A DNA stretch of 64,000 bases from [Actinomadura] parvosata subsp. kistnae (lineage in GTDB: Bacteria; Actinomycetota; Actinomycetes; Streptosporangiales; Streptosporangiaceae): contig NZ_OOHJ01000018.1 of NCBI RefSeq assembly GCF_900323885.1, positions 2,219,001 to 2,283,000 of the forward strand, written 5' to 3'. Below are positions 7,905 to 62,219 of the stretch, one piece after another. Under the pieces are notes generated by a model. It had not been told where the DNA came from, searched no databases, and was given only the letters and a program-made list of their open reading frames with translations. Both the position numbers and the translations under genes were made by a program. Position 1 is the stretch's first letter; each line of letters begins with the position of its first letter.

Positions 7905-7933
7905 CCCGCGCGCCGTTCGGTAGGCGGCACTCC

Positions 7934-8476: not shown

Positions 8477-8478
8477 TC

Positions 8479-10204: not shown

Positions 10205-10275
10205 GGCGACCCTACTCCTACCCTTTGTCCCCATTGATGCCCACAGAGTAGCTATCAGGCGGGTTTCTGGGAAAG

Positions 10276-11829: not shown

Positions 11830-11941
11830 GCCCAATCTTCTGGCTCTTTGGGCGGTGGAGCGGGAAGATGGGGTTCGAGCCGCAATCTGCCGCGCGCGAC
11901 CGTCCCCGAAGGCGCGCCGACCCAGAGGGAGGGGGCTCGCC

Positions 11942-12709
11942 ATGATGCAGCTGTCCGTACGCCTGGTGCCCGTCGACGACACCACACTGGTGATCGCGCT
12001 GACCGGAGAGCTCGACTCGACGACGAAACCCGTGCTGGCCGCCTTCCTCGACCCGCTGCCGCAGACCACGGTGAAGCACGTGCTGGTGGCCGCGGGCGAT
12101 CTGTGGTTCTGCGACCTCAACGGCCTCGACCTGCTCGCGCGCACCCATCGCGCGCTGCAGGAGAAGGGCGGTCACCTGGCCCTGGCGGAGGTGCAGCCGC
12201 CGCTGCGCCGCCTCATCGCGCTGATGACCGAGCAGTCGGCGGCGACGATCCCGGTGTTCGCCACGATGGCCGAGGCGCTGGCGGCGGCGGGCGTGGAGGC
12301 GTACCAACCGGCCGAGCCGGCGCTGCGGCGCCGCCACCTGCCCCGGCTGCGCACCGTGCCGCGCGCTCCGTCCCCCGTGCGGGCGCAGGCCAGGTCGCGG
12401 CGCGAGCCGGCGCCCGCCCAGGCCGCCCAGGCCGCCCAGGCCGCCCGCCCGAGCGCGGCCGAGATCGAGCTCGACGTGAGCAGCCTGCCGTCGGTCATCT
12501 TCGAGGCGCGCTCGCTGCGCGACCAGGCGCTGCACCAGCAGCAGGCGCTGAACAACCGGCTCACCGCCGCGGCCCAGGCCCGCGCCCGGCTCCTGACGAC
12601 CCGGCGGCGCTGCGACGACAGCCTGATGGCCATGCGCAGCAGCCTGTCGGAAGCCCGCTCGATCCTGACGCTGGCCGAGGCGAGCCAGGAGCGGCCCCAT
12701 CTGTCCTGA
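11942..12709 (+). CDS. STAS-domain protein with C-terminal coiled-coil region
   Basis: A 255-residue protein starting at the ATG after a GAGGGAGGGGG ribosome site. Residues 1-110 form a STAS domain of the anti-sigma-factor antagonist type (LTGELDSTTKPVLAAFL, then DLWFCDLNGLDLLAR). A Pro/Arg/Ala-rich linker follows, including an AQAAQAAQAAR repeat (about 155-170), then a predicted helical segment rich in Gln, Arg and Ala (about 185-250). The usual phosphorylatable Ser/Thr position reads DLNGLD, so switching by phosphorylation is doubtful. It lies just upstream of cheB and a cheR-PAS gene and may belong to the same signalling unit. Confidence 0.85.
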   Translation: MMQLSVRLVPVDDTTLVIALTGELDSTTKPVLAAFLDPLPQTTVKHVLVAAGDLWFCDLNGLDLLARTHRALQEKGGHLALAEVQPPLRRLIALMTEQSAATIPVFATMAEALAAAGVEAYQPAEPALRRRHLPRLRTVPRAPSPVRAQARSRREPAPAQAAQAAQAARPSAAEIELDVSSLPSVIFEARSLRDQALHQQQALNNRLTAAAQARARLLTTRRRCDDSLMAMRSSLSEARSILTLAEASQERPHLS

Positions 12710-12747
12710 GCGCGCATGAGGCCTCTCATCCGGGATAGAGGGGGGAC

Positions 12748-13758
12748 ATGGAGGCTCCAGGACGTGACGTGGTCGTGGTCGCCGCATCGGCGGGCGGCGT
12801 TGAGTCACTGCGGGTCCTGCTGAGCGAGCTGCCGGCGGACCTGCCGGCGGCGGTGCTGGTGGTGCTGCACGTGCCGCCGCAGGGCAGCAGCAGGCTGGCC
12901 GGCATCCTCGACCGGGCCGGGCCGCTCAAGGCGGCCCCCGCCGAGGACCAGGAGATCATCCGTCCTGGCCGCGTGTACGTCGCCCGCCCCGACTTCCACC
13001 TGCTCATGAGCGACGGCATGATCCGGCTGACGCGCGGCCCGCAGCACAACGGGCACCGCCCGGCGGCCGATCCGCTGTTCGTGAGCGCGGCTCTCGACGC
13101 GGGAGCGCGCGTGGCGGCCGTGGTGCTGAGCGGCACCCTGGACGACGGGGCGAGAGGGTGCGAGGCGATCTACAAGCACGGGGGTGCGGTCGCCGTACAG
13201 GATCTTGCGGAGTGCGCGTTTCCCGGCATGCCGCGAGCCGCCATGACGGCGGTGCCGGCCGCGCGGGCCCTGCCCGTGCGCGAGCTGGCCGGGTGGGTCC
13301 TGGAGCAGAGCCGTACCCCTGTGAGTACGGAGGTCCAGGTGTACGACAACGAGATGGAGCGCGAGATCGAGCAGTTCCTGCGCGAGGCGCCGTCCCTGGG
13401 CGAGCCGGAAGGGGAACTGATCGCGTTCAGCTGCCCGGAGTGCAACGGCCCCATCTACGAGCAGAAGAGCGCCACATCCTCCCGGTACGTGTGCCGCGTC
13501 GGCCACGCCTGGTCGCGCGACAGCATGATCAACGCGCAGTCCGACGCCGTCGAGCGCGCCCTGTGGGTGGCCATCCAGCGGCTGGAGGAGCGGCTGCGGG
13601 TGCTGGAGCGCATGCGCCGCTCCGCCGAGGAGCGGGGCCAGGAGCTGTCGCTGCGTTACTTCCACGAGGAGGAGGAACGCACCAGCGAGGCACTGAACAC
13701 CATTCGCATGCTGCAATCGCGCATCGGTCGCAATGGTGACACGCTGCTGGCGGACTGA
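12748..13758 (+). CDS. CheB-type protein-glutamate methylesterase, stand-alone
   Basis: A 336-residue CheB effector domain without a receiver domain. The catalytic Ser lies in VVAASAGGVESL, the His in VLHVPPQGSSRL and the Asp in VVLSGTLDDGARG. After about residue 200 comes an extension with a CxxC pair (FSCPECNGPIYE) and a second Cys (RYVCRVGHAW), a possible zinc site, then helices. This extended form travels with CheR-PAS hybrids rather than with flagellar chemotaxis genes. No chemoreceptor or flagellar gene is nearby. It is followed 28 bases later by cheR-PAS. Confidence 0.9.
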   Translation: MEAPGRDVVVVAASAGGVESLRVLLSELPADLPAAVLVVLHVPPQGSSRLAGILDRAGPLKAAPAEDQEIIRPGRVYVARPDFHLLMSDGMIRLTRGPQHNGHRPAADPLFVSAALDAGARVAAVVLSGTLDDGARGCEAIYKHGGAVAVQDLAECAFPGMPRAAMTAVPAARALPVRELAGWVLEQSRTPVSTEVQVYDNEMEREIEQFLREAPSLGEPEGELIAFSCPECNGPIYEQKSATSSRYVCRVGHAWSRDSMINAQSDAVERALWVAIQRLEERLRVLERMRRSAEERGQELSLRYFHEEEERTSEALNTIRMLQSRIGRNGDTLLAD

Positions 13759-13786
13759 GCAGGGTCGATCGGCGTAGGCTTCCGTT

Positions 13787-15643
13787 GTGACGACAGAGGA
13801 AGAGCGTGAGTTCGACGACCTCCTCCTTCTCCTCAAGGAGACGCGCGGTTTCGACTTCACGGGCTACAAGCGCAACACCTTGATCCGGCGGATCGCCCGC
13901 CGGCTCGAGGCGCTCAAGCTGCACGACTACGGCGAATACCGCGATCTACTGGAGTTGGAGCCTGAGGAGTTCACCCGACTCTTCGACAGTCTCTTGATCA
14001 ATGTCACCAGTTTCTTCAGAGACGCGGCCGCGTGGCAGCGGCTGCGCGAGCTCGTCATCCCCGCCCTGCTCGACCAGAAGCCGGCGGGCCAGCCCATCCG
14101 CATCTGGAGCGCCGGGTGCGCCACCGGCGAGGAGGCCTACACCATCGCCATGGTGCTGGCCGAAGAGCTCGGCATGGACGGGTTCCGCGACCGGGTGAAG
14201 ATCTACGGCACCGACCTCGACGAGAAGGCGCTGCACGTCGCCCGCACGGGCGTCTACAACGACCGGGCGCTCGCCGACGTGCCGATCGACCTGCGCGAGG
14301 CCTACTTCGAGCGGGTCGAGAACGGCTACACCTTCCGCCGCGACCTGCGCCGCCAGCTCATCTTCGGCCGCAACGACCTCACCCACGACGCGCCCATCTC
14401 CCGCGTCGACCTGCTGCTGGCCCGCAACACGCTGATGTACTTCAACACGGAGATGCAGCTCAACATCATCCGGCGCTTCCACTTCGCGCTGTCCGACCCC
14501 GGGTTCCTGTTCCTGGGCAAGGCGGAGATGCTGCTCAACCACAGCGACAAGTTCGAGCCCGTCGACCTGCGCATGCGCCTGTTCAGGAAGATCAGGCCGG
14601 CCAACCACGGAAACCGCGCCCCGTGGTCGGTCACCGGCGCCGCCACCGACCTGGCCTCGCGGCTGCCGACGCTGGCGTCCGTGGCGCTGGCGTCCGGCCC
14701 GGTGGCGCAGCTCGTCGTCGACGTCTCGGGCAACCTGGCGCTGGCCAACTCCAAGGCCGAGGCGCTGTTCAACCTCAACCCGCGCGACGTCGGCCGCCCC
14801 TTCCAGGACCTTGAGGTCTCCTACCGCCCCGTGGAGCTGCGCTCGGTCATCGAGCAGGCCCGCCACGACCTGCGCCCGGTGGAGCTGCAGGACGTCGTCT
14901 GGCACCGCGTCGGGTCGCCGGAGCCCAGCGTCTTCGACGTCTCGGTCGTCCCCCTGCTGGCCTCGGGCAATCTGGTCGGGATGGGTATCCACTTCTACGA
15001 TGTCACGCGCTACCGCAAGCTGCGCGACGAGCTGGAGCAGGCCAACCGGCAGCTCGAGCAGGCCTACGAGGAGCTGCAGTCGCTCAACGAGGAGCTGGAG
15101 ACCACCAACGAGGAGCTCCAGTCCACGAACGAGGAGCTGGAAACCACCAACGAAGAGCTCCAGTCCACCAACGAAGAGCTGGAGACGATGAACGAGGAGC
15201 TCCAGTCCACCAACGACGAGCTCCAGCACATCAACGACGCCCTGACCGCCCGCACCATCGAGCTCGACGAGGTCAACCGGTTCGTCTCCTCGGTGGTGCG
15301 CAGCCTCGGCGACGCCGTGGTGGTGCTCGACGACGACCTGCGCGTGGTGGTCTGGAGCCCGGGCGCCGAGGAGCTGTGGGGGGTGCGCTCCGACGAGGCC
15401 GTGGGCGAGCCGCTGGCCGGGCTCGACATCGGCCTGCCCCTCGACCTGCTCCTGCCGCGCCTGCGCGCCGCGCTCGCCAACGGCACCAACCCGCTGGTGG
15501 AGGTGGAGGGGCTGGTGCTCGACGCGGTCAACCGCCGGGGCCGCCCCGCGCCGCTCACCGTGCAGCTCTCACACCTGCGCACGGAGGACGACACCGTTCA
15601 TGGCCTCATCATGGTGATGAACGTGGTCAACTCCGACGGCTAG
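13787..15643 (+). CDS. CheR methyltransferase-PAS hybrid signalling protein
   Basis: A 618-residue protein with a GTG start. Residues 1-275 are a CheR domain (SLLINVTSFFRDAAAWQRL; the SAM motif IWSAGCATGEEAYTIAMVLA). A PAS-like domain follows (about 300-410), then a Glu-rich coiled coil (about 415-485) made of near-identical heptads of the type TNEELQS/TNEELET, then a second PAS domain (about 500-615). In the family this coiled coil joins sensing to output. With CheB upstream and a STAS protein before it, it probably forms a methylation-based, non-flagellar signalling module. No kinase domain is present. A possible -10 (TAGGCT, 13774-13779) sits just before the start, suggesting a leaderless mRNA. 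Confidence 0.9.
   Translation: MTTEEEREFDDLLLLLKETRGFDFTGYKRNTLIRRIARRLEALKLHDYGEYRDLLELEPEEFTRLFDSLLINVTSFFRDAAAWQRLRELVIPALLDQKPAGQPIRIWSAGCATGEEAYTIAMVLAEELGMDGFRDRVKIYGTDLDEKALHVARTGVYNDRALADVPIDLREAYFERVENGYTFRRDLRRQLIFGRNDLTHDAPISRVDLLLARNTLMYFNTEMQLNIIRRFHFALSDPGFLFLGKAEMLLNHSDKFEPVDLRMRLFRKIRPANHGNRAPWSVTGAATDLASRLPTLASVALASGPVAQLVVDVSGNLALANSKAEALFNLNPRDVGRPFQDLEVSYRPVELRSVIEQARHDLRPVELQDVVWHRVGSPEPSVFDVSVVPLLASGNLVGMGIHFYDVTRYRKLRDELEQANRQLEQAYEELQSLNEELETTNEELQSTNEELETTNEELQSTNEELETMNEELQSTNDELQHINDALTARTIELDEVNRFVSSVVRSLGDAVVVLDDDLRVVVWSPGAEELWGVRSDEAVGEPLAGLDIGLPLDLLLPRLRAALANGTNPLVEVEGLVLDAVNRRGRPAPLTVQLSHLRTEDDTVHGLIMVMNVVNSDG
15069..15231 (+). repeat. coding repeat in cheR-PAS coiled coil
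   Basis: The DNA encoding the coiled coil is a 21-base direct repeat (types GAGGAGCTCCAGTCCACCAA and GAGGAGCTGGAGACCACCAA, alternating as a 42-base higher-order unit), about seven to eight copies. Units keep the reading frame, so copy-number change would lengthen or shorten the helix by one heptad at a time. Confidence 0.8.
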
Positions 15644-15646
15644 GAG

Positions 15647-16576
15647 ATGCGCATGCGTGTGAAACCCCGTCGTTCCTTATTCCTGAGGCTGCTCCTCGTG
15701 CCGGCCCTCGCGGTCGCCGCGTGGGCGCCCGCCGCCGCCGCCGTGGCACAGGACAACGTGATCGTCCTGCCCGGCGCCACCTCCGCCGAGGGCATCGCCG
15801 CCGGGCCGGGCGGCACCTTCTACGCCGGCGACCTGTTCGGCGGCGACATCTTCCGCGGCGACGCCCGGCGCGGCACCGCCGAGCGCTTCATCGACGCGCC
15901 CGACGGGCGCATGGCGGTGGGCATGGTCGCCGATCACCGCCACGGCCTGCTGTTCGTCGCGGGCGGCTTCACCGGCCAGGCGTACGTCTACGACCTGCGT
16001 TCCGGAGTGGAGGTGGCCACGTACCAGCTCGCCGCGCCCGATGCGGGGCTCATCAACGACGCGGCCCTGGGCCGCGACGGCGTGTGGTTCACCAACTCCG
16101 GGCGGGCCGAGCTGTACTTCGTGCCGATCGGCCACAAGGGCCGGCTCGGCCCCGCCCGCACGCTCACGGTCACCGGCCCGGCCGCCGACACCAGCGGCGA
16201 GGTCAACCTCAACGGCATCCAGGTCGCCGGCCGCACCCCCATCGTCGCCCACACCGGCCTCGGCCGGCTCTACACGGTCGATCCCGCCACCGGCGCCAGC
16301 ACGCCCATCGCCGGGGTGGACGTGCCGAGCCCCGACGGCCTCGTCCTGTCCGGCGACCGCCTTTGGGTGGTGAACTCGACCAGCCAGGTCTCCCGCTTCC
16401 GCCTGAGCCACGACCTGTCCGGCGGCGTGCTGGAGAAGACGATCACCAGCCCGCTCTTCGACTTCCCCACCACGGCCGCGCTCATCGACCGTCACCGGCT
16501 CGCGGTGGTCAACGGCCACCTCGGCACGATCCCGCCGACGTCGCCGACGTACGAGGTCATCGTCGTCGAGCCCTAG
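15647..16576 (+). CDS. secreted SMP-30/NHL-like beta-propeller protein
   Basis: A 309-residue exported protein. An Arg-rich n-region and hydrophobic core (LRLLLVPALAVAAWAPAAAAVAQ) give a signal peptide of about 33-36 residues. The mature part has repeated blades (SAEGIAAGPGGTFYAGDLFGG, GLLFVAGGFTGQAYVYDL, NLNGIQVAG, DGLVLSGDRLWVVN) like SMP-30/gluconolactonase or NHL proteins. Substrate and activity are unknown. It starts three bases after cheR-PAS, so it is probably co-transcribed. Its stop codon overlaps that of the convergent LysR gene by three bases. Confidence 0.85.
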   Translation: MRMRVKPRRSLFLRLLLVPALAVAAWAPAAAAVAQDNVIVLPGATSAEGIAAGPGGTFYAGDLFGGDIFRGDARRGTAERFIDAPDGRMAVGMVADHRHGLLFVAGGFTGQAYVYDLRSGVEVATYQLAAPDAGLINDAALGRDGVWFTNSGRAELYFVPIGHKGRLGPARTLTVTGPAADTSGEVNLNGIQVAGRTPIVAHTGLGRLYTVDPATGASTPIAGVDVPSPDGLVLSGDRLWVVNSTSQVSRFRLSHDLSGGVLEKTITSPLFDFPTTAALIDRHRLAVVNGHLGTIPPTSPTYEVIVVEP

Positions 16577-17508
16577 CGGCGTGACGTGGCCCAGGACGGC
16601 ACCCAGGCCGTCCTGGGCGCGCCCGCCAGGCTCCGGAAGTAGTCAATGATCGGCCGGAGCCGGGGGTGCGGGTTCGCCCGTGGCATGAGGAGCGCGTGCG
16701 GGTAGGCGAGCACGGGGTCCACGATCGGGATGCGGCGCAGGTCGTGGCCGGCCGGCCAGGCGAGCCGGTCGCGGGCGCCGACGAGCGTGGCCACGTCACC
16801 CGACTCCGCGAGCGTGTCGAGCAAGGGCTCGATCCCGAAGTTGGGGCCCTCCCCGTCGATGCGCAGGCCGAAGGCGGTGGCGAGCTGGTCGTAGAAGTCG
16901 GCCCACTCGCTGCGCGGCGCGAGGCCCGCGATCCGGATCCGGTGCGGGCGCAGCTGCTCCGGCGTCACCGTACGGGCGGCGGCGAGCGGATGCCCCGGCC
17001 CCACGAGCAGCTCCAAGGGGACGTCGAGCACCCGGGCCATCTCGACGTCGCGGGGCAGCGCGGCCGGGTCGGTGACGGCCCGGAAGGAGGCGTCGACCTC
17101 GCCCGCCCGGACGGCCGCGACCGCCGTCCCGGGGTCACCCGCCTTCAACGCGACCACGTCGAGCTGGATCCCGGGGTTCGAGCGCCAGTAGTCGTGCAGG
17201 ACGACGGCCTGCGCGCTGCGGAAGCCCAGCACGTCGATCCGCAGCAGCCGCGCGTCGGGCCGGACCGCGCCCATGGCGTGCTCGACGCCCGCGACGATGC
17301 CCCGCGCGTGCGGGAGGAACGCCTGGCCGCCGGGCGTCAACTCGACCCCCCGGGCGGTGCGGGTGAACAGGCGCACCTCCAGCTCGCGCTCCAGGGCGGC
17401 GATCCGCTTCGAGACCGCCTGCTGGGTCACGCCCAGCTCGTCGGCCGCGTACTGGAACTGGCCGAGCTCCGCCGCCCGGACGAACGATCGCACCGCTTCC
17501 GTGTCCAC
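16573..17508 (-). CDS. LysR-family transcriptional regulator
   Basis: A 311-residue LysR regulator. The N-terminal winged helix-turn-helix (about residues 1-60: VRSFVRAAELGQFQYAADEL, then VTQQAVSKRIAALERELEVR) precedes a periplasmic-binding-like effector domain. It sits downstream of the sialidase gene on the same strand, separated by a tandem repeat, and may regulate that gene or itself; this is inference. The ligand is unknown. Confidence 0.92.
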   Translation of the reverse strand: MDTEAVRSFVRAAELGQFQYAADELGVTQQAVSKRIAALERELEVRLFTRTARGVELTPGGQAFLPHARGIVAGVEHAMGAVRPDARLLRIDVLGFRSAQAVVLHDYWRSNPGIQLDVVALKAGDPGTAVAAVRAGEVDASFRAVTDPAALPRDVEMARVLDVPLELLVGPGHPLAAARTVTPEQLRPHRIRIAGLAPRSEWADFYDQLATAFGLRIDGEGPNFGIEPLLDTLAESGDVATLVGARDRLAWPAGHDLRRIPIVDPVLAYPHALLMPRANPHPRLRPIIDYFRSLAGAPRTAWVPSWATSRR

Positions 17509-17540
17509 CGCCGCAGCTTACGCGCGCCCAGCCGCCCGGC

Positions 17541-17616
17541 GGCTCCCCCAGCGCCCGGCCGGCCAGTGGCTCCCGGCAGCGCCCGGCCGGCCGTTGGCTC
17601 CCCTCAGCGGGCGGCC
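17541..17616. repeat. tandem repeat, 27-28-bp unit, at the sialidase 3' end
   Basis: Three units begin with GGCTCC at 17541, 17568 and 17596, each followed by a CAGCG and GGCCGGCC core. The third unit contains the sialidase stop codon (TGA on the minus strand, 17606-17604), so the last residues of the protein are encoded by a repeat copy. The remaining units fill the gap to the LysR start. Confidence 0.82.
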
Positions 17617-18707
17617 AGCTCCGCGACCGGGATCCGGCGGAAGGCGATGCTCTCGTACGGGCCGAAGTTCCCCGTCTCGAACAGCAGGCCCACCGTCTCG
17701 CCGTCCACCCGCACCAGGTCGGAGTAGGCGGCGGGCAGCCCCGACACCGTGTGCGCCACCCGCCAGGTGACGCCGTGGTCGTGGCTGGCGCGCACGGTCA
17801 TCAGGGCCCGCGCGTCGGGCGCCGCGGGCCCCGAGAACAGCAGCACCTCCGGCTCGTCGCACCACAGCACGCTGCCCTCCACCACCGGCCCGGCGAGCCC
17901 GGCCTGCGGGCGGAACGGCAGCTCCAGCGTCTGCCCGCCGTCGGCCGAGCAGGCGTCGGCCCTGGTGCCGGGGGCGGTGGAGTCGGTGCGGGTGTTGAGG
18001 TAGAGCCGGCCGCCGGGCAGCTCGGTGGCGGTGGTCTCGTTCACGTTGACGTAGCCGTCGGGGTTGTCGTCGACGTACCCGATGCGCCAGGTCTGCCCGC
18101 CGTCGTCGCTCAGCAGCGCGTGGCCGCCGTTGTACTTGCCCTCGGTGCCGTTGTCCTGCCCGCTGGGCGGCAGCGAGTGGTTGGCGGGCACGACGACGCG
18201 CCCGGCGTGCTCGCCCTGCCGGAGCTGGACCGCGTGCCCGGGCGTGGTCGCGTACCACCGCCACTCGGGCTTCTTCACGCTCCCGGTGATCTCCCTGGGC
18301 GCCGACCACGTGGCCCCGTCGTCCTCGCTGACCTGTGCGAACACCCGCCGCCCTGCCGCCGCGGGGACCTGGCCGCGCCGGATCTTCTCCTCGGTGGCCG
18401 ACGGGCCCTGCCGCACGAAGACGAGCAGGATCCGGCCGTCGTCGAGCACCACCGGCGCCGGGTTCCCCGCCGTGCCCCGCTGCGGCTCCGTCGCCACCAC
18501 CTGGAGCCCGCCCCACGTCCGGCCGCCGTCGGACGACCGCTTGAGCACCAGGTCGATGTGCCCGGAGTCGGACGCCGACCCGCGCCGCCCCTCCGCGAAC
18601 GCCAGCACCGTGCCGGCCCGCGTCACCACGGCCGCCGGGATCCGGAACGTGTGGTAGCCGTCCGTCGCCTGCCGGAACGGCACCGAAGTCGGGTAGTCAT
18701 CCGCCAT
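17604..18707 (-). CDS. exo-alpha-sialidase (GH33-like, BNR repeats)
   Basis: A 367-residue six-bladed propeller of the sialidase family. The FRIP motif (residues 21-24) carries the first arginine of the carboxylate-binding triad, and Asp-box repeats are SSDGGRTW (about 58), SEDDGATW, SDDGGQTW and SHDHGVTW. GNPAPVVLDDGRILLVFVRQG and AYSDLVRVDGETVGLLFETG fit the catalytic face. No signal peptide is present, so it would act inside the cell or leave by another route. A role on sialic acids or related nonulosonates is family knowledge; no uptake or catabolic genes are adjacent. Confidence 0.88.
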   Translation of the reverse strand: MADDYPTSVPFRQATDGYHTFRIPAAVVTRAGTVLAFAEGRRGSASDSGHIDLVLKRSSDGGRTWGGLQVVATEPQRGTAGNPAPVVLDDGRILLVFVRQGPSATEEKIRRGQVPAAAGRRVFAQVSEDDGATWSAPREITGSVKKPEWRWYATTPGHAVQLRQGEHAGRVVVPANHSLPPSGQDNGTEGKYNGGHALLSDDGGQTWRIGYVDDNPDGYVNVNETTATELPGGRLYLNTRTDSTAPGTRADACSADGGQTLELPFRPQAGLAGPVVEGSVLWCDEPEVLLFSGPAAPDARALMTVRASHDHGVTWRVAHTVSGLPAAYSDLVRVDGETVGLLFETGNFGPYESIAFRRIPVAELAAR

Positions 18708-18866
18708 GCGGGCACGCTAGGGCGCGCGGGTTAACGGACTTCGACGCCGCCCCTACGTGCGGGCGAATGGCCGGGGGTGACCCGCGCCTCGGGGCCGGGT
18801 TCGCGGGGCGCCGATCGGCCGTGAAAGCATCTTCTCGATAGCCGAACGAGTCTTGTGGAGGCAGGG

Positions 18867-20273
18867 GTGGCTGACGAGTTCGATGTCATCGTCATCGGGG
18901 CGGGGCCGGCGGGCGAGAACGTCGTGGACCGCGCCGTGCGGGGCGGCCTGACCGCGGCCATCGTCGAGGAGCGGCTGGCCGGCGGCGAGTGCTCCTACTG
19001 GGCGTGCGTGCCGAGCAAGGCGCTGCTGCGGCCGATCGACCTGGCGGGCGAGGTGGCGCGGGTGCCCGGCCTGTCGCTCGGCCCGATCGATGTCGCCAAG
19101 GTGCTGGCCAGGCGCGACGAGGCCGTCTCCGGCTACGACGACGCCGGCCAGGTGCGCTGGGTCGAGGGCGTCCCGGCCGAGTTCGTCCGCGGCCGCGGCC
19201 GCCTCGACGGCCCCAAGCGCGTCCTCGTGACGGGGGAGAACGGCGCGGAGCGGGTGCTGACCGCCCGCCAGGCCGTCGTGCTGGCGACCGGCAGCACCGC
19301 CGCCATCCCGCCCACGCCCGGCCTGGCCGAGGCGGCCCCCTGGACCAGCCACGAGGTGACGGCGGCGACCGCGATCCCCGAGCGGCTGGTCGTGATCGGC
19401 GGCGGCGTGGTCGCCTGCGAGATGGCGCAGGCCATGCACGGGCTCGGCGCCCGGCAGACCACCGTGCTGGTGCGCGGCGGCGGGCTGCTCAACCGCATGG
19501 AGCCGTTCGCGGGCGAGCTGCTCGCCGAGTCGTTCGCCGAGGCGGGCATCGACGTGCGCACCCACACCGACGTCGTCCGGGTCGAGCGGCCGGAGCCCGG
19601 CGGGAAGGTCACCGTGCACCTGCCGGAGGGGCCGCCGCTGGAGGCCGACGAGCTGCTGGTGGCGACCGGCCGCCACCCCGCGACCCGCAACCTGGGGCTC
19701 GCCTCGGTGGGCCTGCCGGAGGACCGGCCGGTCGAGGTGGACGACAGCCTGCGCGCCACCGGGGTCGAGGGCGGCTGGCTGTACGCCGTCGGCGACGTCA
19801 ACGGGCGGGTGCTGCTGACGCACATGGGCAAGTACCAGGCCAGGATCTGCGGCGACGTGATCGCGGCGCGGGCGCGGGGCGACGAGCTGCCCGCGATGCG
19901 CGACCTGGCGGGCGGCTACGGCGCACCCCAGGTCGTCTTCACCGACCCGCAGATCTGCGCGGTGGGCCGCACCGAGGAGGCGGCCCGCGCCGACGGCTTC
20001 CGCGTGCGCGTGGTCGACTACGACATGGGGGCGGTCACCGGGGCCTACCTGCTGGGCGACGGCTACCGCGGCAAGGCCAGGGCCATCGTCGACGAGGACA
20101 GGAAGGTGCTGCTCGGCGTCACCTTCGCCGGCCCCGGCGCGGCCGAGCTGCTGCACGCGGCGACGATCGCGGTGACGGCCGAGGTGCCGCTCGACCGGCT
20201 CTGGCACGCGGTGCCGTCGTTCCCGACGGTGAGCGAGATCTGGCTGCGCCTCCTGGAGACCTACGGCCTGTAG
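18867..20273 (+). CDS. flavin disulfide reductase (dihydrolipoyl dehydrogenase / mercuric reductase family)
   Basis: A 468-residue FAD/NAD(P) oxidoreductase. The GTG at 18867 is preferred over the one at 18855 because GGAGG (18857-18861) stands five bases before it. VIVIGAGPAGENVVDRA is the FAD site, GGECSYWACVPSKALL holds the redox-active pair Cys42/Cys47, RLVVIGGGVVACEMAQAMHG is the NAD(P) site and LYAVGDVNGRVLL the second FAD contact. The C-terminal signature reads VPSFPTVSE, without the His-Pro-Thr of classical lipoamide dehydrogenases, so the general acid is missing or shifted. True substrate unknown. Confidence 0.9.
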   Translation: MADEFDVIVIGAGPAGENVVDRAVRGGLTAAIVEERLAGGECSYWACVPSKALLRPIDLAGEVARVPGLSLGPIDVAKVLARRDEAVSGYDDAGQVRWVEGVPAEFVRGRGRLDGPKRVLVTGENGAERVLTARQAVVLATGSTAAIPPTPGLAEAAPWTSHEVTAATAIPERLVVIGGGVVACEMAQAMHGLGARQTTVLVRGGGLLNRMEPFAGELLAESFAEAGIDVRTHTDVVRVERPEPGGKVTVHLPEGPPLEADELLVATGRHPATRNLGLASVGLPEDRPVEVDDSLRATGVEGGWLYAVGDVNGRVLLTHMGKYQARICGDVIAARARGDELPAMRDLAGGYGAPQVVFTDPQICAVGRTEEAARADGFRVRVVDYDMGAVTGAYLLGDGYRGKARAIVDEDRKVLLGVTFAGPGAAELLHAATIAVTAEVPLDRLWHAVPSFPTVSEIWLRLLETYGL

Positions 20274-20339
20274 GAGGTCCGCCGAGACCTACGGCCTGGA
20301 GGAGGTCCGCCGAGACCTACAGCCTGGAGGAGGGGCGCC
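20256..20339. repeat. tandem repeat, 28-bp unit, at the flavoreductase 3' end
   Basis: Three units of 28 bases (20256-20283, 20284-20311, 20312-20339), consensus GAGACCTACGGCCTG followed by GAGGAGGTCCGCC. The first unit encodes the last residues ETYGL and the TAG stop of the oxidoreductase; in units 2 and 3 the TAG reads GAG. The array ends six bases before the convergent STAS gene. Confidence 0.9.
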
Positions 20340-20345
20340 GGCCGG

Positions 20346-20825
20346 TCAGCCGCATTCCCGCCGCACGTCCAGGCGCGCGGTCATTTGCGGCGGGATCCGG
20401 GCGGGCGCGGCGGGCCCGCCGCGCTCCTCCGGCTCCAGCATCAGCTCCGCCACCGTCTCCTCGACGCTGTCGCGCACCTCCACGCGCGAGAGCAGGTCCG
20501 TCAGGCGCAGCACCGACAGCAGGTGGTCGGACGGCCGGACCACGAAGATCCGGCCGCTGCCCTCCTCGGCCATCCGCTGCATGGCCAGGCCCAGCACCCC
20601 GATGACCGACGAGTCGAAGAAGTCGAGGTCGGCCAGGTCGAACACGAGGGTCGGCCCGGGCGACCAGTCCCACACGTCGTTGATGCGGGCACTGAAGCGG
20701 ACGCGCCCGTCGTGGTCGAGCACGCCGCTGGCGCGCAGGACCGTGCAAGGGAGATGCCGGGTCGTCTCGATTCGCAAACCGCTCGTGCCCACCTGAATCC
20801 CCTGCCCGCTCAGCGGCGTTATCAC
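20346..20825 (-). CDS. STAS-domain anti-sigma factor antagonist
   Basis: A 159-residue protein with a GTG start overlapping the stop of the marR gene (GTGA). The STAS core (about 20-120) shows VLRASGVLDHDGRVRFSARI and VFDLADLDFFDSSVIGVLGL, where the Asp-Ser-Ser is the usual phosphorylation site of SpoIIAA/RsbV-like proteins. The tail is Pro/Arg-rich. It should act by binding an RsbW-like anti-sigma kinase; none is adjacent, though an RsbW-like gene lies at 42228-42722. Confidence 0.88.
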   Translation of the reverse strand: MITPLSGQGIQVGTSGLRIETTRHLPCTVLRASGVLDHDGRVRFSARINDVWDWSPGPTLVFDLADLDFFDSSVIGVLGLAMQRMAEEGSGRIFVVRPSDHLLSVLRLTDLLSRVEVRDSVEETVAELMLEPEERGGPAAPARIPPQMTARLDVRRECG

Positions 20826-52000: not shown

Positions 52001-56028
<4,028 letters not shown>

Positions 56029-57200: not shown

Positions 57201-57503
57201 TTACTCGGACTTGGAGAAACCGTTCTCGATCTCGGTGTCCTTGTTGTGGTCACCGACGGACGGCTGGTTGTTGTTCAGCAGCTGGAGGTCGACCTCGTCG
57301 AGGATGTTGATGATCTCAACCTCGATGTCGTTGGCCGAGTGGTTCAGCACGTCGTTCAGCGCGTCGTCGATGATTTGGAACTGGGACAGCAGGGCCTGGC
57401 CCTTGTTGCTCGGGTTGGGGCCGACGTCGGCGGACGCGGCGGTCGCGGAGAACCCGAGAGCGGCGGCCGCGATAGCGGCACCGGCCAGAATACGACGGAT
57501 CAT
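57201..57503 (-). CDS. small secreted protein, paralogue 1 of 3
   Basis: A 100-residue exported protein with signal peptide MIRRILAGAAIAAAALGFSA, cleaved probably after ASA (about residue 25). The mature part (about 75 residues) is acidic, without Cys, and keeps the pattern shared by the three paralogues: DVGPN, SQFQIIDD, LND/NVLNHSANDIEV, IINILDEV, LLNNNQPSVG, then NKDTEI near the end. I do not recognise a family. Size, export and Asn/Gln-rich core recall structural coat proteins such as rodlins or chaplins, but there is no clear homology. Ribosome site GGAGG about 8 bases upstream. Confidence 0.85.
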   Translation of the reverse strand: MIRRILAGAAIAAAALGFSATAASADVGPNPSNKGQALLSQFQIIDDALNDVLNHSANDIEVEIINILDEVDLQLLNNNQPSVGDHNKDTEIENGFSKSE

Positions 57504-57973
57504 TGTTTGCTTTCCTCCATGGATCGGCGGCGGGAATCCCGGCGCCGGGTTCATTCGTGCAGAGCTGTGAGGTGCCGCTGTCAACGATCGTGGCGGGCAT
57601 CGGAGATAGCAAACTCGAAATGCCCTCATGGAGGTCAAGGAGGCGCTTGGATTCTTTGGCACTGGATTTCGGCGACCGGCGGGGTCGTCGTTGAGTATCG
57701 GTGTCCGTGGATATCGGCGTCCGTGTCACTCACGATTTCCGGCCGGCTTCGCAAAGGCTGGGAAGCGTCTGCCGCACGTCCTCGGGCGACCTTGTGCGGT
57801 CGCGCCGAGGACGTACGGCCCCCGAACGCTTCAGTGCCCCGAAAGCCGCTCCGTGGCCTCGCGAGTCTCCACGATCAAGTTCTTTCGTGCACCTGGGAGA
57901 GAGGAGGGCGGTTGGCCACGCGGCCCGCTTCGGTGCGGTGCCGCCGCGTCTCCTCCGCTTTTCGGCCCGAGGG
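57504..57973. promoter_or_regulatory. conserved upstream region of secreted paralogue 1
   Basis: Of this 470-base gap, about 57504-57665 is the leader/promoter of paralogue 1 and aligns with the matching regions of paralogues 2 and 3, including TTGACCT (minus strand, 57632-57638), 129 bases before the start. The rest (about 57700-57973) is the downstream flank of paralogue 2 and resembles DNA downstream of paralogue 1 (GACGTACGGCC, CGTGG-CTCGCGAGT). No gene is seen. Confidence 0.65.
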
Positions 57974-58276
57974 CTACTCGGCCTTGGCGTGCCCGTTGCT
58001 GATCTCGGTGTCCTTGTTGGCGTCGCCTACCGAGGGCTGGTTGTTGTTCAGCGCCTGGACGTTGACCTCGTCGAGGATGTTGATGATCTCGACCTCGAGG
58101 TCGTTCAGGGTGTGGTTGGCGACGTCGTTCAGGAGATCGTCGATGACCTGGAACTGGCTCAGGATGGCCTGGCCGCCGTTGTACGGGTTGGGGCCGACGT
58201 CGGCGGACGCGGCGGTCGCGGAGAACCCGAATGCGGCGGCCGCGATAGCGGCACCGGCCAGAATACGACGGATCAT
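57974..58276 (-). CDS. small secreted protein, paralogue 2 of 3
   Basis: 100 residues, same length as its neighbours. The signal peptide differs from paralogue 1 by one residue (AAAAFGFSA). The mature part keeps DVGPNPYN, SQFQVIDDLLNDV, LNDLEVEIINILDEV, NNNQPSVGDANKDTEI and a basic/acidic tail HAKAE. Nearly identical leaders in paralogues 2 and 3 show this pair is the most recent duplication. Exported and probably cell-surface or matrix associated; function unknown. Confidence 0.87.
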   Translation of the reverse strand: MIRRILAGAAIAAAAFGFSATAASADVGPNPYNGGQAILSQFQVIDDLLNDVANHTLNDLEVEIINILDEVNVQALNNNQPSVGDANKDTEISNGHAKAE

Positions 58277-58603
58277 GGTTGCTTTCCTCCGTGGATCGGC
58301 GCGGAATTCCGGCGCCATAGTCGTTCGTGCAGGGCTGTGAGGTGCCGCCAATAACAATTGCGGCGGGCGGCGGAGCCCGCAACCCGGAAAGGCCTTATGG
58401 AGGTCAAGAAGCCGCCTCGATTCTTTGGTGTCGGGTTTCACGGCCGGGAAACCGGCAGCGGTGCGACGGGTCCCCGACATCGCGGCGCTTTAGTCTTTCC
58501 ATGGCCTCGCGGATACCACCGCCGGCTCTTTCGCATACGGACGGGCAGGAGGCGGCCGGGTCACGGGGCCCGGCCGCTCCCATCGTCCGTGGACGCCCTG
58601 GAC
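58277..58603. promoter_or_regulatory. conserved upstream region of secreted paralogue 2
   Basis: The first 75 bases (58277-58351) are almost identical to the leader of paralogue 3 and include the ribosome site and a palindrome GGCGCGGAATTCCGGCGCC (58298-58316). TTGACCT (minus strand, 58401-58407) stands 125 bases before the start, as in paralogue 3. The remaining bases to 58603 are the downstream flank of paralogue 3. No gene is seen. Confidence 0.7.
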
Positions 58604-58906
58604 CTACTCCGCGCTGGCGTGGCCGTTCTTGATGTCGGTGTCCTTGTTGTGGTTGCCGACAGTGGGCTGGTTGTTGTTCAGCAGCGGGACGTTGACCTCG
58701 TCCAGGATGTTGATGATCTGGACTTCGATGTCGTTGGCCGAGTGGTTCAGCACGTTGTTCAGCACGTCGTCGAGGATCTGGAACTGGCTGATGACGTCCG
58801 CGCCCTCGTTGCGCACGTTGGGGCCGACGTCGGCGGACGCGGCGGTCGCGGAGAACCCGAAGGCGGCGGCCGCGATAGCGGCACCGGCCAGAATACGACG
58901 GATCAT
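58604..58906 (-). CDS. small secreted protein, paralogue 3 of 3
   Basis: 100 residues, signal peptide identical to that of paralogue 2. Mature part DVGPNVRN, ISQFQILDDVLNNVLNHS, NDIEVQIINILDEV, LLNNNQPTVGNHNKDTDI, tail HASAE. No Cys, net acidic. The three genes have the same orientation, each with its own leader, so they are three transcription units rather than an operon. Unknown function; high expression would fit the strong GGAGG sites. Confidence 0.87.
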   Translation of the reverse strand: MIRRILAGAAIAAAAFGFSATAASADVGPNVRNEGADVISQFQILDDVLNNVLNHSANDIEVQIINILDEVNVPLLNNNQPTVGNHNKDTDIKNGHASAE

Positions 58907-59241
58907 GGTTGCTTTCCTCCGTGGATCGGCGCGGAATTCCGGCGCCATAGTCGTTCGTGCAGGGCTGTGAGGTGCCGCGAATAACCCTCACGGGAAGAGA
59001 CGAAAACCGCAACTCGGAAAGACCTTGGCTAGGTCAAAGTGCCGCCTCTATTTTTTGGCGTCGGCTTTTCCCGGCCCGCCGCGGCACCGCCCTGTACTGG
59101 ACTTCGGCGCTCCGCATTCAACCGGCGTCCGGTCGCCTGGGAACGTCCACGGGGAATTCGTTCACCGCTCGTTGGACAACATTCGACCGGCTCTTTGGGG
59201 ATCCTTCCTGTACCGGTGGAGGAGGCTGCCGGTAACGCTCG
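58907..59241. promoter_or_regulatory. conserved upstream region of secreted paralogue 3
   Basis: Leader and promoter of paralogue 3: the palindrome GGCGCGGAATTCCGGCGCC at 58928-58946 and TTGACCT (minus strand, 59031-59037), 125 bases before the start. The homology with the other two upstream regions fades beyond about 59060. From there to 59241 I see no gene or clear site. Confidence 0.65.
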
Positions 59242-59688
59242 TCACGACTCCTCGGCGAGACGGTCGAGGGCCGCCGAGAGCCGCTGGAGCGCCTCCAGGC
59301 ACCGCCGCGCGTCCTCGACGCCGAGCTCCCCCACCAGCCGGTCGGCGAACTCCTGATGACCGGGGACGATCTTGGCGATGGCCTCGCGCCCCGCCTGCGT
59401 GGGGCTCAGCAGCTTGGCCCGCCGGTGCGCCGGGTTGGGCCGGTACTCGGCCAGCCCCCGCTCCACCAGCAGGTCGGCGATGCGCTGCACGCCCTGCCTG
59501 GTCATCCCCATGACGCGGGCGATGCCCGCGACGGGCAGCGGCTCGCGCAGGACCGCGCCGAGCACCTGCCACCACGCGGCCGTCATCCCCGACGGCCGGG
59601 CCAGCCCCTCCGCCACCTGGAGGAACTGGCCGTTGAGCCGGAAGGCTCTTAACGCCATGCCGGACAACAACTCGGCGCTCTCGCTCAT
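59242..59688 (-). CDS. MarR-family transcriptional regulator
   Basis: A 148-residue regulator; the ATG at 59688 overlaps the stop of the DJ-1-like gene (ATGA). Winged helix about 35-100 (MTAAWWQVLGAVLREPLPVA, GIARVMGMTRQGVQRIADLL, NPAHRRAKLLSPTQAG). It probably binds the large palindrome at 60302-60336 in front of its own operon and so also affects the divergent NERD gene; this is inference from position. Ligand unknown. Confidence 0.92.
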   Translation of the reverse strand: MSESAELLSGMALRAFRLNGQFLQVAEGLARPSGMTAAWWQVLGAVLREPLPVAGIARVMGMTRQGVQRIADLLVERGLAEYRPNPAHRRAKLLSPTQAGREAIAKIVPGHQEFADRLVGELGVEDARRCLEALQRLSAALDRLAEES

Positions 59689-60302
59689 GCCGTCATCAAC
59701 ACCTCGAAGGCCGAGGCGTCGCTCCTGGCGAACAGCCGGAACCAGGCATCCAGCACCTCGGGCCGGTAGATGTCGAGGCGGCGGAAGACCTCCCTGGCGA
59801 ACGCCACCGGCTCCGTCGGGCCGGCCGTGACGAGGTCGCCGTCGAGCACCGCGTCGCGGTCGAGGTAGCGCTTGGCCCCGGCGTACCCCTCCTGAGCCTC
59901 CAGGTACTGGGGTGCGGCGCCGGTGTGGTCGCGGTCGTCGAGCAGCCCCTCGCGGGCCAGCCCCGCCGTGGCGCCGCAGATGGCGGCCACCGGCACCCCC
60001 GCGTCGAGGAACTCGCGGGCCTTGCCCGCGAACGGCGCCAGCGCGTCTCCCGCGTCCCACAGGTCGGCCCCGGGCAGGATGAGAAGTGCGCTGTCCGCAG
60101 GGGAGAGGTCCGCCAACGCGATGTCGGGCGTGATGCGCAGGCCGCCCATGGTGACCACCGGGTCGGTGGTCAGGCCGACGGTGACGATCTCGAACCCGCC
60201 GGCCTCGCGCTGGTAGTGGCCGTTGCGCAGATGAGAGGTGAGGTGACCGGTCTCCCAGTCGGCGAGCGTGTCGTAAACGGCGTGGTGAGCGATTTTCTTC
60301 AT
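59685..60302 (-). CDS. DJ-1/PfpI-family protein
   Basis: A 205-residue class I glutamine-amidotransferase-like protein. The nucleophile elbow is PVAAICGATAGLAREG with Cys109; the acidic residue near the N-terminal strand is in ETGHL (about 17-21). Related YdeA/PfpI proteins act in stress responses or as glyoxalases/deglycases; exact activity unknown. First gene of an operon with marR. Its start codon touches the edge of a 35-base palindrome. Confidence 0.9.
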   Translation of the reverse strand: MKKIAHHAVYDTLADWETGHLTSHLRNGHYQREAGGFEIVTVGLTTDPVVTMGGLRITPDIALADLSPADSALLILPGADLWDAGDALAPFAGKAREFLDAGVPVAAICGATAGLAREGLLDDRDHTGAAPQYLEAQEGYAGAKRYLDRDAVLDGDLVTAGPTEPVAFAREVFRRLDIYRPEVLDAWFRLFARSDASAFEVLMTA

Positions 60303-60336
60303 GACAGTATCTTGTCATAACGACAACATGCTGTCA
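60302..60336. promoter_or_regulatory. large palindrome, probable MarR operator
   Basis: TGACAG-4-TTGTC and GACAA-4-CTGTCA arranged symmetrically about ATAAC (60317-60321), giving 11 perfectly paired bases in each 15-base arm over 35 bases. It contains the inner site TTGTCATAACGACAA (60312-60326). It lies between the DJ-1-marR operon and the NERD gene and overlaps the DJ-1 start codon by one base. Confidence 0.8.
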
Positions 60337-60363
60337 ATCGATAACCGTGGAAGGATAGGCCGC

Positions 60364-61713
60364 ATGGCAGAGATCGTCGGCGGAGGACGTCCGGTCAACG
60401 ACGCCGAGCGGCGCGTGATCGCATACCTGCGCGACCACGCGCCCGCCGACTGGCTGCTGCTGCACAACGTCGAGGTCCCGCGCGGCCACGACGTCTTCGA
60501 GGTCGACCTGCTCGTGCTGACCGGCCACTCGCTCGTCGTGGTCGACGTCAAGGGCACCCGCGGGCGCATCGAGGTGTCGGGCACCCGCTGGTTCCCGCCG
60601 CGCAGAGAGGCGTTCGGGTCGCCGGTGACCAAGCTGCGCGGCACCGCCAAGGCGCTCAAGGGCCTGCTCGTGTCCAGGGCCACCCAGCTCGAACGCGTCT
60701 ACGTCGACAGCCTGGTCGTGCTCACCTCGCCCGACGCCGAGCTGGTCGACTCGGCCGGCCGCGACGCGGTCAACGTCACCGACCTGCCCGGCCTGCTCCC
60801 CACGCTCAGCGACGTCTCCCGCGTCCGGCGCGGGTGCAGCCCCGACGCCAGGCCGTACCTCACCGCGATCCTCGACGCCCTCAACCAGACCGTACGCCGC
60901 AGCACCGCCCCGCCCCGCTACGGCAACTGGGAGGTCGAGGAGCAGCTCGGCGGCGACTCCAAGGTCACCGAATACCGCGCCTTCAACGTCACGCTGCCCG
61001 GCAGCGAGACCGTGCTGCTGCGCGTCTACCAGGCCGACCCCATGGCCGACCAGCAGGCGCGGGCGGCCGAGCGGCAGCGCATCGCCAACGCCTACCAGAC
61101 GCTGGCCCGCATCCCGCCGCACCCGCGCGTGGTGCGCTCGCGCGACTTCTTCGCCATCGACGACGAGAGCCGGTTCGTGCTCGTGCTCGACGACGTGCAC
61201 GGCGAGGCGCTGCACCTGGCCCTCGGCAAGGGCGCCCCGCTCGGCGTGATCCAAGACCTGCTGAGCGGCCTCGCCCACGCCCACGCCAACGGCGTCGTGC
61301 ACCGCGCGCTCACCCCCGCCGCCGTGCTGGTCACCGACGACGGGCACGCGGTGCTCACCGGCTTCGACTACGCCAAGCCGGGCCCCCGCAACTACACCGT
61401 CGCCCACGAGCTGGGCAACGTCCTCGACGCCGCCTACGTGGCGCCCGAGTGCCAGGAGCGGCCCGACCTGATGACCACCGCCTCCGACGTGTACGCGGCC
61501 GGCGTCATCGCCTTCCAGCTCCTCACCGGGCAGCTGCCCACCAGCGGCGACGCCCAGGGCCCCGACGTGCCCGAGGTGGTGCGCCGCATGCTCGACCACT
61601 CCCCCGCCAAGCGCCCGTCGGCGGCCGAGGCACTGGAGATGCTGCGCGCCGGCGCCCCCGCCCAGGGCTCGAAGCTCAGGAGGTTCGTGCGTCGCATAGT
61701 GTCCCGATCATGA
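60364..61713 (+). CDS. NERD-domain protein with kinase-like (pseudokinase) domain
   Basis: A 449-residue protein from the ATG at 60364 (GGAAGGA upstream). The NERD domain (about 10-125) has the nuclease-related core VEVPRGHDVFEVDLLVLTG and LVVVDVKGTRGRIE. A protein-kinase-like domain (about 205-430) follows, but key residues are lost: Arg in LLRVYQ where Lys is expected, HRALTPAAVLV for HRDxKxxN, and GFDYAK for DFG. It is therefore likely a pseudokinase. NERD-kinase fusions occur in phage-defence proteins such as PglW, but no other Pgl/BREX gene is present. Coupled to a GNAT gene by ATGA. Confidence 0.88.
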   Translation: MAEIVGGGRPVNDAERRVIAYLRDHAPADWLLLHNVEVPRGHDVFEVDLLVLTGHSLVVVDVKGTRGRIEVSGTRWFPPRREAFGSPVTKLRGTAKALKGLLVSRATQLERVYVDSLVVLTSPDAELVDSAGRDAVNVTDLPGLLPTLSDVSRVRRGCSPDARPYLTAILDALNQTVRRSTAPPRYGNWEVEEQLGGDSKVTEYRAFNVTLPGSETVLLRVYQADPMADQQARAAERQRIANAYQTLARIPPHPRVVRSRDFFAIDDESRFVLVLDDVHGEALHLALGKGAPLGVIQDLLSGLAHAHANGVVHRALTPAAVLVTDDGHAVLTGFDYAKPGPRNYTVAHELGNVLDAAYVAPECQERPDLMTTASDVYAAGVIAFQLLTGQLPTSGDAQGPDVPEVVRRMLDHSPAKRPSAAEALEMLRAGAPAQGSKLRRFVRRIVSRS

Positions 61714-62219
61714 CTGTGCGGCTGCGTCCCGTCGAAGAGGACGACCTTCCCTTCCTGCACCGGCTCACCAGCGACCCCGACGGCGCGGGCGAGTTCCAGT
61801 GGTACGGCTTCCAGGACCCGCGCCGGCTGCGGCGGCGCTGGGAGGAGTCCGGCATGCTGTCCGACGACGGCGGCCTGCTGATCATCGCCGACGGCGACGA
61901 GGCGATCGGCTTCGTCTCCTGGAGCAGGCAGGTCGCCACCCGCATCAGCCACTCCTGGTCGATGGGCCTGATCGTGGCCCCCGAGCACCGCGGCAAGGGC
62001 CACGGCACGCACGCGCAGAAGCTGCTCGCCCGCTACCTGTTCGACCACTCCACCGTCAACCGGATCGAGGCGTCCACCGAGATCACGAACGTGGCCGAGC
62101 AGCGGGCGCTGGAGAAGGCCGGGTTCACCCGCGAGGGCGTGCTGCGCGGCGCCGGCTTCCGGGCCGGTCAGTGGCACGACGGCGTGCTCTACAGCATGAT
62201 CCGCGCCGACCTGGGCTGA
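61710..62219 (+). CDS. GNAT family N-acetyltransferase
   Basis: A 169-residue acetyltransferase of the RimJ/RimL type. MGLIVAPEHRGKGHGTHAQK holds the acetyl-CoA loop (about 88-105), and NRIEASTEITNVAEQRALEK with AGFTREGVLRGAGF the C-terminal signature. The ATG overlaps the stop of the NERD-pseudokinase gene, so the two are made together; a functional link is inferred only from this. Its stop is inside a 17-base tandem repeat. Confidence 0.9.
   Translation: MTVRLRPVEEDDLPFLHRLTSDPDGAGEFQWYGFQDPRRLRRRWEESGMLSDDGGLLIIADGDEAIGFVSWSRQVATRISHSWSMGLIVAPEHRGKGHGTHAQKLLARYLFDHSTVNRIEASTEITNVAEQRALEKAGFTREGVLRGAGFRAGQWHDGVLYSMIRADLG

What the first reader, a model, noticed from the sequence alone, without database searches (positions are those of the whole stretch)
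60302..62219. NERD-pseudokinase coupled to an acetyltransferase and facing a MarR-DJ-1 operon
The kinase-like domain has lost the ATP Lys, the catalytic Asp of HRD and the DFG motif, yet the fold is well kept and fused to a nuclease-related NERD domain. NERD-kinase fusions are known in phage defence (PglW). Here the only partner is a GNAT enzyme joined by an ATGA overlap. A two-gene NERD-pseudokinase/GNAT unit is not one I recognise.
Basis: partly seen in the sequence, partly recalled or inferred. Interest (0 to 1): 0.5.

Follow-up and report, generated by a model that had tools for sequence, protein, structure and literature searches.

The report
Orphan core piece of MADS defence protein
A bacterial gene that looks like one half of a phage-defence protein, a probable DNA-cutting domain joined to a dead kinase, appears to have been cut loose from its defence system and kept as an ordinary inherited gene, while the enzyme gene beside it is only an occasional neighbour.

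Summary
In detail: 60364-61713 (+) encodes a NERD domain plus a kinase fold without catalytic residues, joined by an ATGA overlap to a GNAT gene (61710-62219), opposite DJ-1/MarR genes. The two-gene defence-unit reading does not hold: the NERD-pseudokinase is in 54 of 54 Nonomuraea genomes, the GNAT lies beside it in 25 of those 54 and in 0 of 36 loci of other genera (three too short to tell). The protein is an orphan N-terminal half of MAD6, the kinase of the MADS phage-defence system. It passes NCBIfam's MAD6 cut-off (478 against 460 bits) with 461 of 612 model positions, but lacks MAD6's second kinase and C-terminal half. MAD5 and MAD7 are absent from its genome. Short forms are one clade (100/100), probably nested in MAD6 (94/83). 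NERD residues E15, D48, D61, K63 are kept in 89 of 89 short rows; the residues replacing the kinase's Lys and DFG are equally fixed. A basic C-terminal tail ends the short form. Best reading: a core, kinase-free NERD nuclease with a pseudokinase regulator. No activity was tested.

The parts
60364..61713 (+). NERD-pseudokinase protein, 449 aa; orphan N-terminal half of MAD6
60364..60738 (+). NERD domain (residues 1-125); candidate active site E15, D48, D61, K63
   Evidence: Pfam PF08378 residues 12-121; residues kept in 89 of 89 short rows; AlphaFold2 pLDDT 91.5 for residues 1-180; best VIA-align matches Z 8-9.7 include PD-(D/E)XK nucleases, Foldseek E only 1.9e-3
60922..61653 (+). pseudokinase domain (residues 187-430): R220 for beta-3 Lys, HRA, GFD
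61654..61710 (+). basic C-terminal tail (residues 431-449, ...GSKLRRFVRRIVSRS)
   Evidence: RR in the last 16 residues of 80 of 80 short proteins; raised helical hydrophobic moment
61710..62219 (+). GNAT acetyltransferase, 169 aa, ATGA overlap; facultative neighbour
60303..60316 (.). operator-like palindrome GACAGTATCTTGTC
60322..60335 (.). operator-like palindrome GACAACATGCTGTC
59685..60302 (-). DJ-1/PfpI family protein, divergent neighbour
59242..59691 (-). MarR family regulator, downstream of DJ-1

Best explanation
The gene is a free-standing N-terminal half (NERD nuclease-like domain plus pseudokinase) of MAD6, the NERD-pseudokinase-kinase protein of MADS phage-defence operons. It separated once, probably by losing the active kinase and the C-terminal half, and became a vertically inherited, single-copy gene of the Streptosporangium/Nonomuraea group. 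Shown: composition, MAD6 kinship, single clade, genus-wide presence, no MADS operon beside it, intact NERD residues, fixed degenerate kinase residues. Inferred: NERD is still a nuclease (about 0.6); the pseudokinase is a non-catalytic scaffold or switch that holds NERD and releases it on a signal or partner; the basic C-terminal helix, where the second kinase used to begin, docks the protein on nucleic acid or the membrane; the role is intrinsic defence against foreign DNA or DNA upkeep rather than an inducible kinase-driven response (defence about 0.35). The GNAT is an accessory passenger, at most a modifier, in part of one genus; the MarR protein may control both divergent genes there.
For: NCBIfam MAD6 478 bits over residues 1-431. 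A relative 57% identical over its N-half (L090/L120) sits in an operon whose products PADLOC names mad2 to mad7; L117 likewise. Tree: 23 short forms one clade 100/100; short plus MAD6 99/98; nesting 94/83. No other MADS protein of L120 matches the window or any of 79 short loci; MAD6 C-half: no match in 79 loci or window. mad7 in 3 of 150 family genomes, exactly the 3 with full-length MAD6 over 700 bits, none of the 39 with the short form. Core: 54 of 54 Nonomuraea. Selection: median dN/dS 0.10 for NERD, 0.23 for the pseudokinase, 0.22 overall, 15 pairs. Residues. Neighbours differ between genus groups, so no shared operon partner was seen. Published: PglW and some DndF carry NERD, an inactive kinase and an active kinase (PMC12839542, PMC10853773, passages).
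Against: No activity is shown for any NERD domain here; PMC4365076 calls PglW's NERD 'as yet uncharacterised' (passage). Foldseek gave no PDB match at E 0.001 or better for NERD alone (best 1.9e-3, Bax1), and VIA Z up to 9.7 includes Schlafen regions as well as nucleases. PADLOC scores PglW (124 bits) above mad6 (110 bits) for the window protein. Nesting inside MAD6 is just under the tool's starred level, with long-branch warnings, and 7% of bootstrap trees keep MAD6 together, so 'MAD6 grew from a short form' is not excluded. Genus-wide vertical retention is unusual for a defence gene and may mean a housekeeping role.
Confidence: 0.5

Rival explanations
1. The NERD-pseudokinase and the GNAT form a two-gene defence or toxin-like system: the GNAT acetylates the pseudokinase or a target and the nuclease acts on phage DNA.
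For: ATGA overlap in the window and in 17 of 20 GNAT-bearing loci, a 2-base gap in 3; 25 of 54 Nonomuraea genomes have the pair; GNAT dN/dS 0.20-0.59 in 19 pairs, so it is a real gene. GNAT domains are fused to some DndF proteins (PMC10853773, passage).
Against: Absent next to the gene in 29 of 54 Nonomuraea genomes and 36 of 36 loci of other genera; 10 changes on the tree; looser selection than on the NERD-pseudokinase, though on other species pairs; PADLOC finds nothing for the GNAT.
Confidence: 0.1
2. A housekeeping DNA-processing protein: the NERD half was co-opted for repair, recombination or nucleoid upkeep and has no defence role now.
For: Presence in 54 of 54 genomes of the genus, no mobile-element or defence neighbours in the clusters inspected, low dN/dS, structural matches to repair nucleases such as Bax1 and EndoMS.
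Against: All other known kin are defence proteins; absent from other actinobacterial families in the class and phylum samples, where over-cut-off matches outside the window's family were all long forms, so it is not a general repair gene.
Confidence: 0.3
3. A relic or regulator without nuclease function: the pseudokinase is the working part, for example as a binding platform for one of the many active Ser/Thr kinases of the genome.
For: 142 matches to the MAD6 profile in the genome, nearly all to ordinary kinases; the pseudokinase's odd residues are invariant.
Against: NERD is the most constrained part (dN/dS 0.10) and its four candidate catalytic residues are kept in 89 of 89 rows.
Confidence: 0.15

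Closest known systems
MAD6 of the MADS (methylation-associated defence system) operon
   Same: NERD plus pseudokinase over residues 1-431; 57% identity to L120 MAD6
   Different: No second kinase (HCDxKPxN in 5 of 5 MAD6 inspected), no C-terminal half, no mad2-mad7 operon; core rather than sporadic; basic tail instead
PglW of type 2 BREX / Pgl
   Same: NERD followed by an inactive kinase (PMC12839542 and PMC4365076, passages); PADLOC PglW 124 bits
   Different: PglW is 1400-1600 residues with an active kinase, wHTH triad and iSTAND domain (PMC12839542, passage); about 25% identity at this distance and no Pgl genes seen
NERD / inactive kinase / active kinase fusions of DndF
   Same: Same order of the first two domains, and GNAT is another domain fused to DndF in some cases (PMC10853773, passages)
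   Different: No DndF P-loop core, no Dnd genes seen
Other short NERD-kinase-like open frames, L108 (583 aa) and L109 (674 aa)
   Same: NERD plus dead kinase without full-length partner domains
   Different: About 25% identity, nested in another long clade: possibly a second, independent detachment

Membership tests
MADS phage-defence system | MAD6 profile over the curated cut-off | tested here: met
   NF047741.1 478.3 against 460 bits, but positions 1-461 of 612 only
MADS phage-defence system | full-length MAD6 with second, active-like kinase and C-terminal half | tested here: not met
   449 aa; MAD6 residues 780-1387 give no match in the window or 79 short loci at E 1e-3
MADS phage-defence system | operon with mad2, mad3, mad4, mad5, mad7 | tested here: not met
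   No match to L120's other MADS proteins in the 64-kb window; genome-wide mad7 0, mad5 0; mad2 profile only hits generic methyltransferase cores, best 99.8 bits against 242 in real operons. mad1, mad3, mad4, mad8 not searched genome-wide
PglW / type 2 BREX | NERD, inactive kinase, active kinase, wHTH and iSTAND in 1400-1600 aa | tested here: not met
   449 aa; NCBIfam PglW 116 against a cut-off of 990 bits
NERD (PD-(D/E)XK nuclease-like) | profile match and catalytic-type residues | tested here: met
   PF08378 67.1 against 22.1 bits; E15, D48, D/E61, K63 in 89 of 89 short and 16 of 16 long rows. The residue roles are inferred from the family motif as recalled
NERD (PD-(D/E)XK nuclease-like) | PD-(D/E)XK fold | tested here: inconclusive
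   VIA Z 8-9.7 with Cdn1, Can2, VC1899 and Schlafen; Foldseek best E 1.9e-3
NERD (PD-(D/E)XK nuclease-like) | nuclease activity | not testable with these tools
   needs biochemistry
Pseudokinase | kinase fold without beta-3 Lys, HRD Asp and DFG | tested here: met
Two-gene NERD-pseudokinase/GNAT unit | conserved pairing | tested here: not met
   adjacent in 25 of 54 Nonomuraea genomes, 0 of 36 loci of other genera

The most novel reading that the evidence does not exclude
A phage-defence protein was split once and its nuclease-pseudokinase half was domesticated as a core gene of a whole actinobacterial group, with a new basic C-terminal anchor replacing the kinase: an always-present, kinase-independent innate immunity or DNA-surveillance nuclease, in which the pseudokinase alone is the switch.
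Probability: 0.35. Interest if true: 0.65.

Novelty: new variant of a known kind. Interest (0 to 1): 0.45.

Why it matters
NERD-pseudokinase-kinase proteins (PglW, MAD6, some DndF) are large and hard to study; what NERD and the dead kinase do in them is open. A 449-residue natural version without the active kinase isolates that question in one testable protein. It is also a warning for annotation: the MAD6 equivalog model of NCBIfam scores this orphan above its cut-off in 52 of 54 Nonomuraea genomes, so a MADS component may be reported where no MADS operon exists.

Tried and rejected
Two-gene defence unit: rejected on distribution. Complete MADS or BREX in this genome: mad5 and mad7 not found, mad2 only generic; BREX genes were not searched apart from PglW. 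Recent transfer on phage or plasmid: one phage match, 30% to the kinase part only; for the NERD part two 'plasmid' records, one an 11.85-Mb Nonomuraea gerenzanensis record filed as a plasmid and one Piscinibacter plasmid (42%) with a MADS-like gene order, on which no profile was run. Recent kinase loss in this strain: rejected, the losses are shared. MarR/DJ-1 as a functional partner: only within Nonomuraea (DJ-1 in 38 of 43 loci) and Thermoactinospora L072 (1 of 36 other loci).

Weak points. The tail pattern was written after seeing the tails; its comparison (79 of 80 ends against 31 of 1520 other stretches) is therefore biased, and the shuffle test gives p under 0.1 in 62 of 80. The strict DFG pattern was found in the second kinase of only 1 of 5 MAD6 proteins. 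Long rows L107, L110, L112 and L114 had no blastp match at 1e-10 and are missing from the motif counts (16 of 20 long loci used). My gene finder missed some real genes, the window GNAT among them, so neighbour clusters are partial. The 150 family genomes are taken to be the same draw, because the handles shown agree. The MADS paper (Cell Host Microbe 2024, doi 10.1016/j.chom.2024.07.005) is not held; I saw only its entry in a reference list, and what I say of MADS beyond PADLOC and NCBIfam labels is recalled. Paper searches listed no account of a free-standing NERD-pseudokinase; that covers only the open-licence library.

Full report
What is there. The window is part of an unnamed 13.56-Mb genome (G000:C22:2219001-2283000) whose nearest relative at this locus is Nonomuraea thailandensis (96% identity). 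At 60364-61713 (+) lies a 449-aa protein: NERD (residues 12-121, Pfam E 2.3e-18) and a protein-kinase fold (E 3.5e-18). The GNAT gene follows at 61710-62219 with an ATGA overlap. Opposite are DJ-1/PfpI and MarR genes. Between the divergent genes are two operator-like palindromes, at 60303-60316 and 60322-60335; with one mismatch allowed the pattern occurs nowhere else in the window (4 strand matches, all at these two sites; 0.13 expected; 1 of 100 shuffles reached 4). At least one strict site is found within 90 bases upstream in 38 of 43 Nonomuraea loci and in 1 of 36 loci of other genera (L072, which also keeps DJ-1 and MarR). This fits a MarR-type operator; that is inference.

What family. 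NCBIfam names it MAD6 of the methylation-associated defence system (478.3 against 460 bits) but only over model positions 1-461 of 612; PADLOC ranks PglW (124 bits) above mad6 (110 bits). The same NCBIfam search over genomes shows two kinds of protein: about 450-490 aligned residues ending after the first kinase (39 of 150 genomes of the window's family, 15 genera) and full-length matches in open frames of about 1,350-1,570 residues. In the class sample (296 genomes) 18 were over the cut-off: 10 short, all in the window's own family, and 8 long, all outside it. In the phylum sample 3 of 396 matched at E 1e-80: the window's genome and two long forms.

The long forms are MADS. In L120 the 1387-aa relative (57% identical over the N-half) is flanked by products that PADLOC calls mad2, mad3, mad4, mad5 and mad7; a 1675-aa protein where mad8 would be has no match and runs off the contig. 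L117 gives mad2-mad7 as well. Relatives of L120's mad2, mad5, mad7 and the large protein accompany MAD6 in L119 and L121-L124; L118 has all of these but mad2. The window and all 79 short loci match only mad6, and none matches MAD6's C-terminal part. In the family sample mad7 occurs in 3 of 150 genomes: the three that have full-length MAD6. In the window's genome mad5 is absent and mad2 has only generic methyltransferase-core matches.

Origin. In a tree of 42 NERD-pseudokinase regions the 23 short forms are one clade (100/100), short forms plus MAD6 another (99/98), and four MADS-type MAD6 (L090, L117-L119) are sister to the short forms (94/83) with the other four MAD6 outside. Rooted on distant PglW-like long rows this means one loss of the second kinase and C-half. 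The key branch falls just short of the tool's starred level, and long branches were flagged. L108 and L109, open frames of 583 and 674 residues in another long clade, may be a second detachment.

A core gene. The short form is in 54 of 54 Nonomuraea genomes (52 over the cut-off), one copy each; three genomes (G425, G462, G463) carry in addition a long relative of 1270-1410 residues. Vertical descent is inferred from presence and from the tree, not from a marker-gene comparison. Median dN/dS against 15 Nonomuraea loci is 0.10 for NERD, 0.25 for the linker, 0.23 for the pseudokinase and 0.22 overall.

Residues and fold. E15, D48, D61 and K63 of NERD are kept in 89 of 89 short rows (84 distinct) and, with D or E at 61, in 16 of 16 long rows. 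In the kinase the beta-3 Lys position is Arg in 89 of 89, HRD is HRA (86) or HRS (3), DFG is GFD in 89 of 89, while H313, R314, E362 and D375 are invariant in the short rows. Long relatives lack the beta-3 Lys and the HRD Asp too (16 of 16), though 9 of 16 keep the Asp of DFG. So death of this kinase is old and its replacements are fixed. In five MAD6 proteins the second kinase keeps HCDxKPxN and a Lys of beta-3 type; a strict DFG was seen in one. AlphaFold2 gives pLDDT 83.5 for the whole protein and 91.5 for residues 1-180. The kinase part matches PknB. The NERD part matches nucleases such as Cdn1, Can2 and VC1899 at VIA Z 8-9 and Schlafen regions at up to 9.7, but no Foldseek hit reached E 0.001.

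Tail. All 80 short proteins examined (window and 79 loci) have RR in the last 16 residues, with median net charge +5; the helical hydrophobic moment beats 90% of shuffles in 62 of 80. I read it as a basic amphipathic helix that docks on nucleic acid or membrane; this is inference, and the regular expression used for the 79-of-80 count was chosen after looking.

The GNAT. In 79 named loci it lies next to the gene in 20, all among the 43 Nonomuraea loci; 17 overlap by four bases and 3 have a 2-base gap; L011 aligns only to residues 1-97. Of the 36 loci of other genera none has it, 3 ending within 510 bases downstream. In 54 Nonomuraea genomes 30 have a match at E 1e-45: 25 adjacent (one, G003, partial), one elsewhere at 80% identity (G447), four distant at 49-54%. 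Ten changes of state on the gene tree, at least five forced. It is an accessory neighbour. Outside Nonomuraea the gene has other neighbours: a response regulator, a pyridoxamine-oxidase-like protein and an epimerase in Microbispora and Planotetraspora; a diacylglycerol-kinase-like and a peptidase-like protein in Streptosporangium (these names are my reading of the sequences, no profile was run).

Mechanism and verdict. Most likely the protein is a kinase-free remnant of MAD6 in which a NERD nuclease is controlled by the pseudokinase and positioned by the basic tail, serving intrinsic defence or DNA upkeep. Origin from MAD6 kin is well supported, nuclease activity plausible, physiological role open. 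Published work describes NERD plus inactive plus active kinase in PglW and DndF (PMC12839542, PMC10853773; passages) and shows PglW's active kinase is needed for phage resistance while its NERD is uncharacterised (PMC4365076; passages). I found no account of the free-standing half in the searches named under Tried and rejected.

Noticed in passing
52001-55751 (+): Type 2A-like encapsulin shell protein with a cyclic-nucleotide-binding domain (SrpI-like, E 5.9e-139) directly before a terpene synthase (Terpene_syn_C_2, E 2.4e-101), after polyprenyl synthetase (50003) and LytB/IspH (51035) genes: looks like an encapsulin-terpene cluster.
   Followed up: partly
57201-58948 (-): Three tandem paralogous small secreted-looking proteins (mature start ...SADVGPN..., repeated NILDEV.. 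and NNNQP motifs) without a Pfam match at E 0.01; their cluster has 51 members in 29 sources.
   Followed up: partly
L142 (NZ_CP136338.1, Piscinibacter gummiphilus plasmid), 4600-20531: MADS-like gene order on a plasmid: N-6 methylase, AAA ATPase, two hypotheticals, a 1391-aa protein kinase, two hypotheticals; no profile run.
   Followed up: no
L125 and L127 (G139, G097); also G425, G463: 1270-residue NERD-pseudokinase-kinase open frames just under or at the MAD6 cut-off; around L125 and L127 no mad2, mad5 or mad7 match: perhaps another system that uses a MAD6-like kinase.
   Followed up: no
L141 (NZ_LT559118.1): An 11.85-Mb Nonomuraea gerenzanensis record is filed as 'plasmid I' in the plasmid collection and carries the NERD-pseudokinase without GNAT.
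   Followed up: yes
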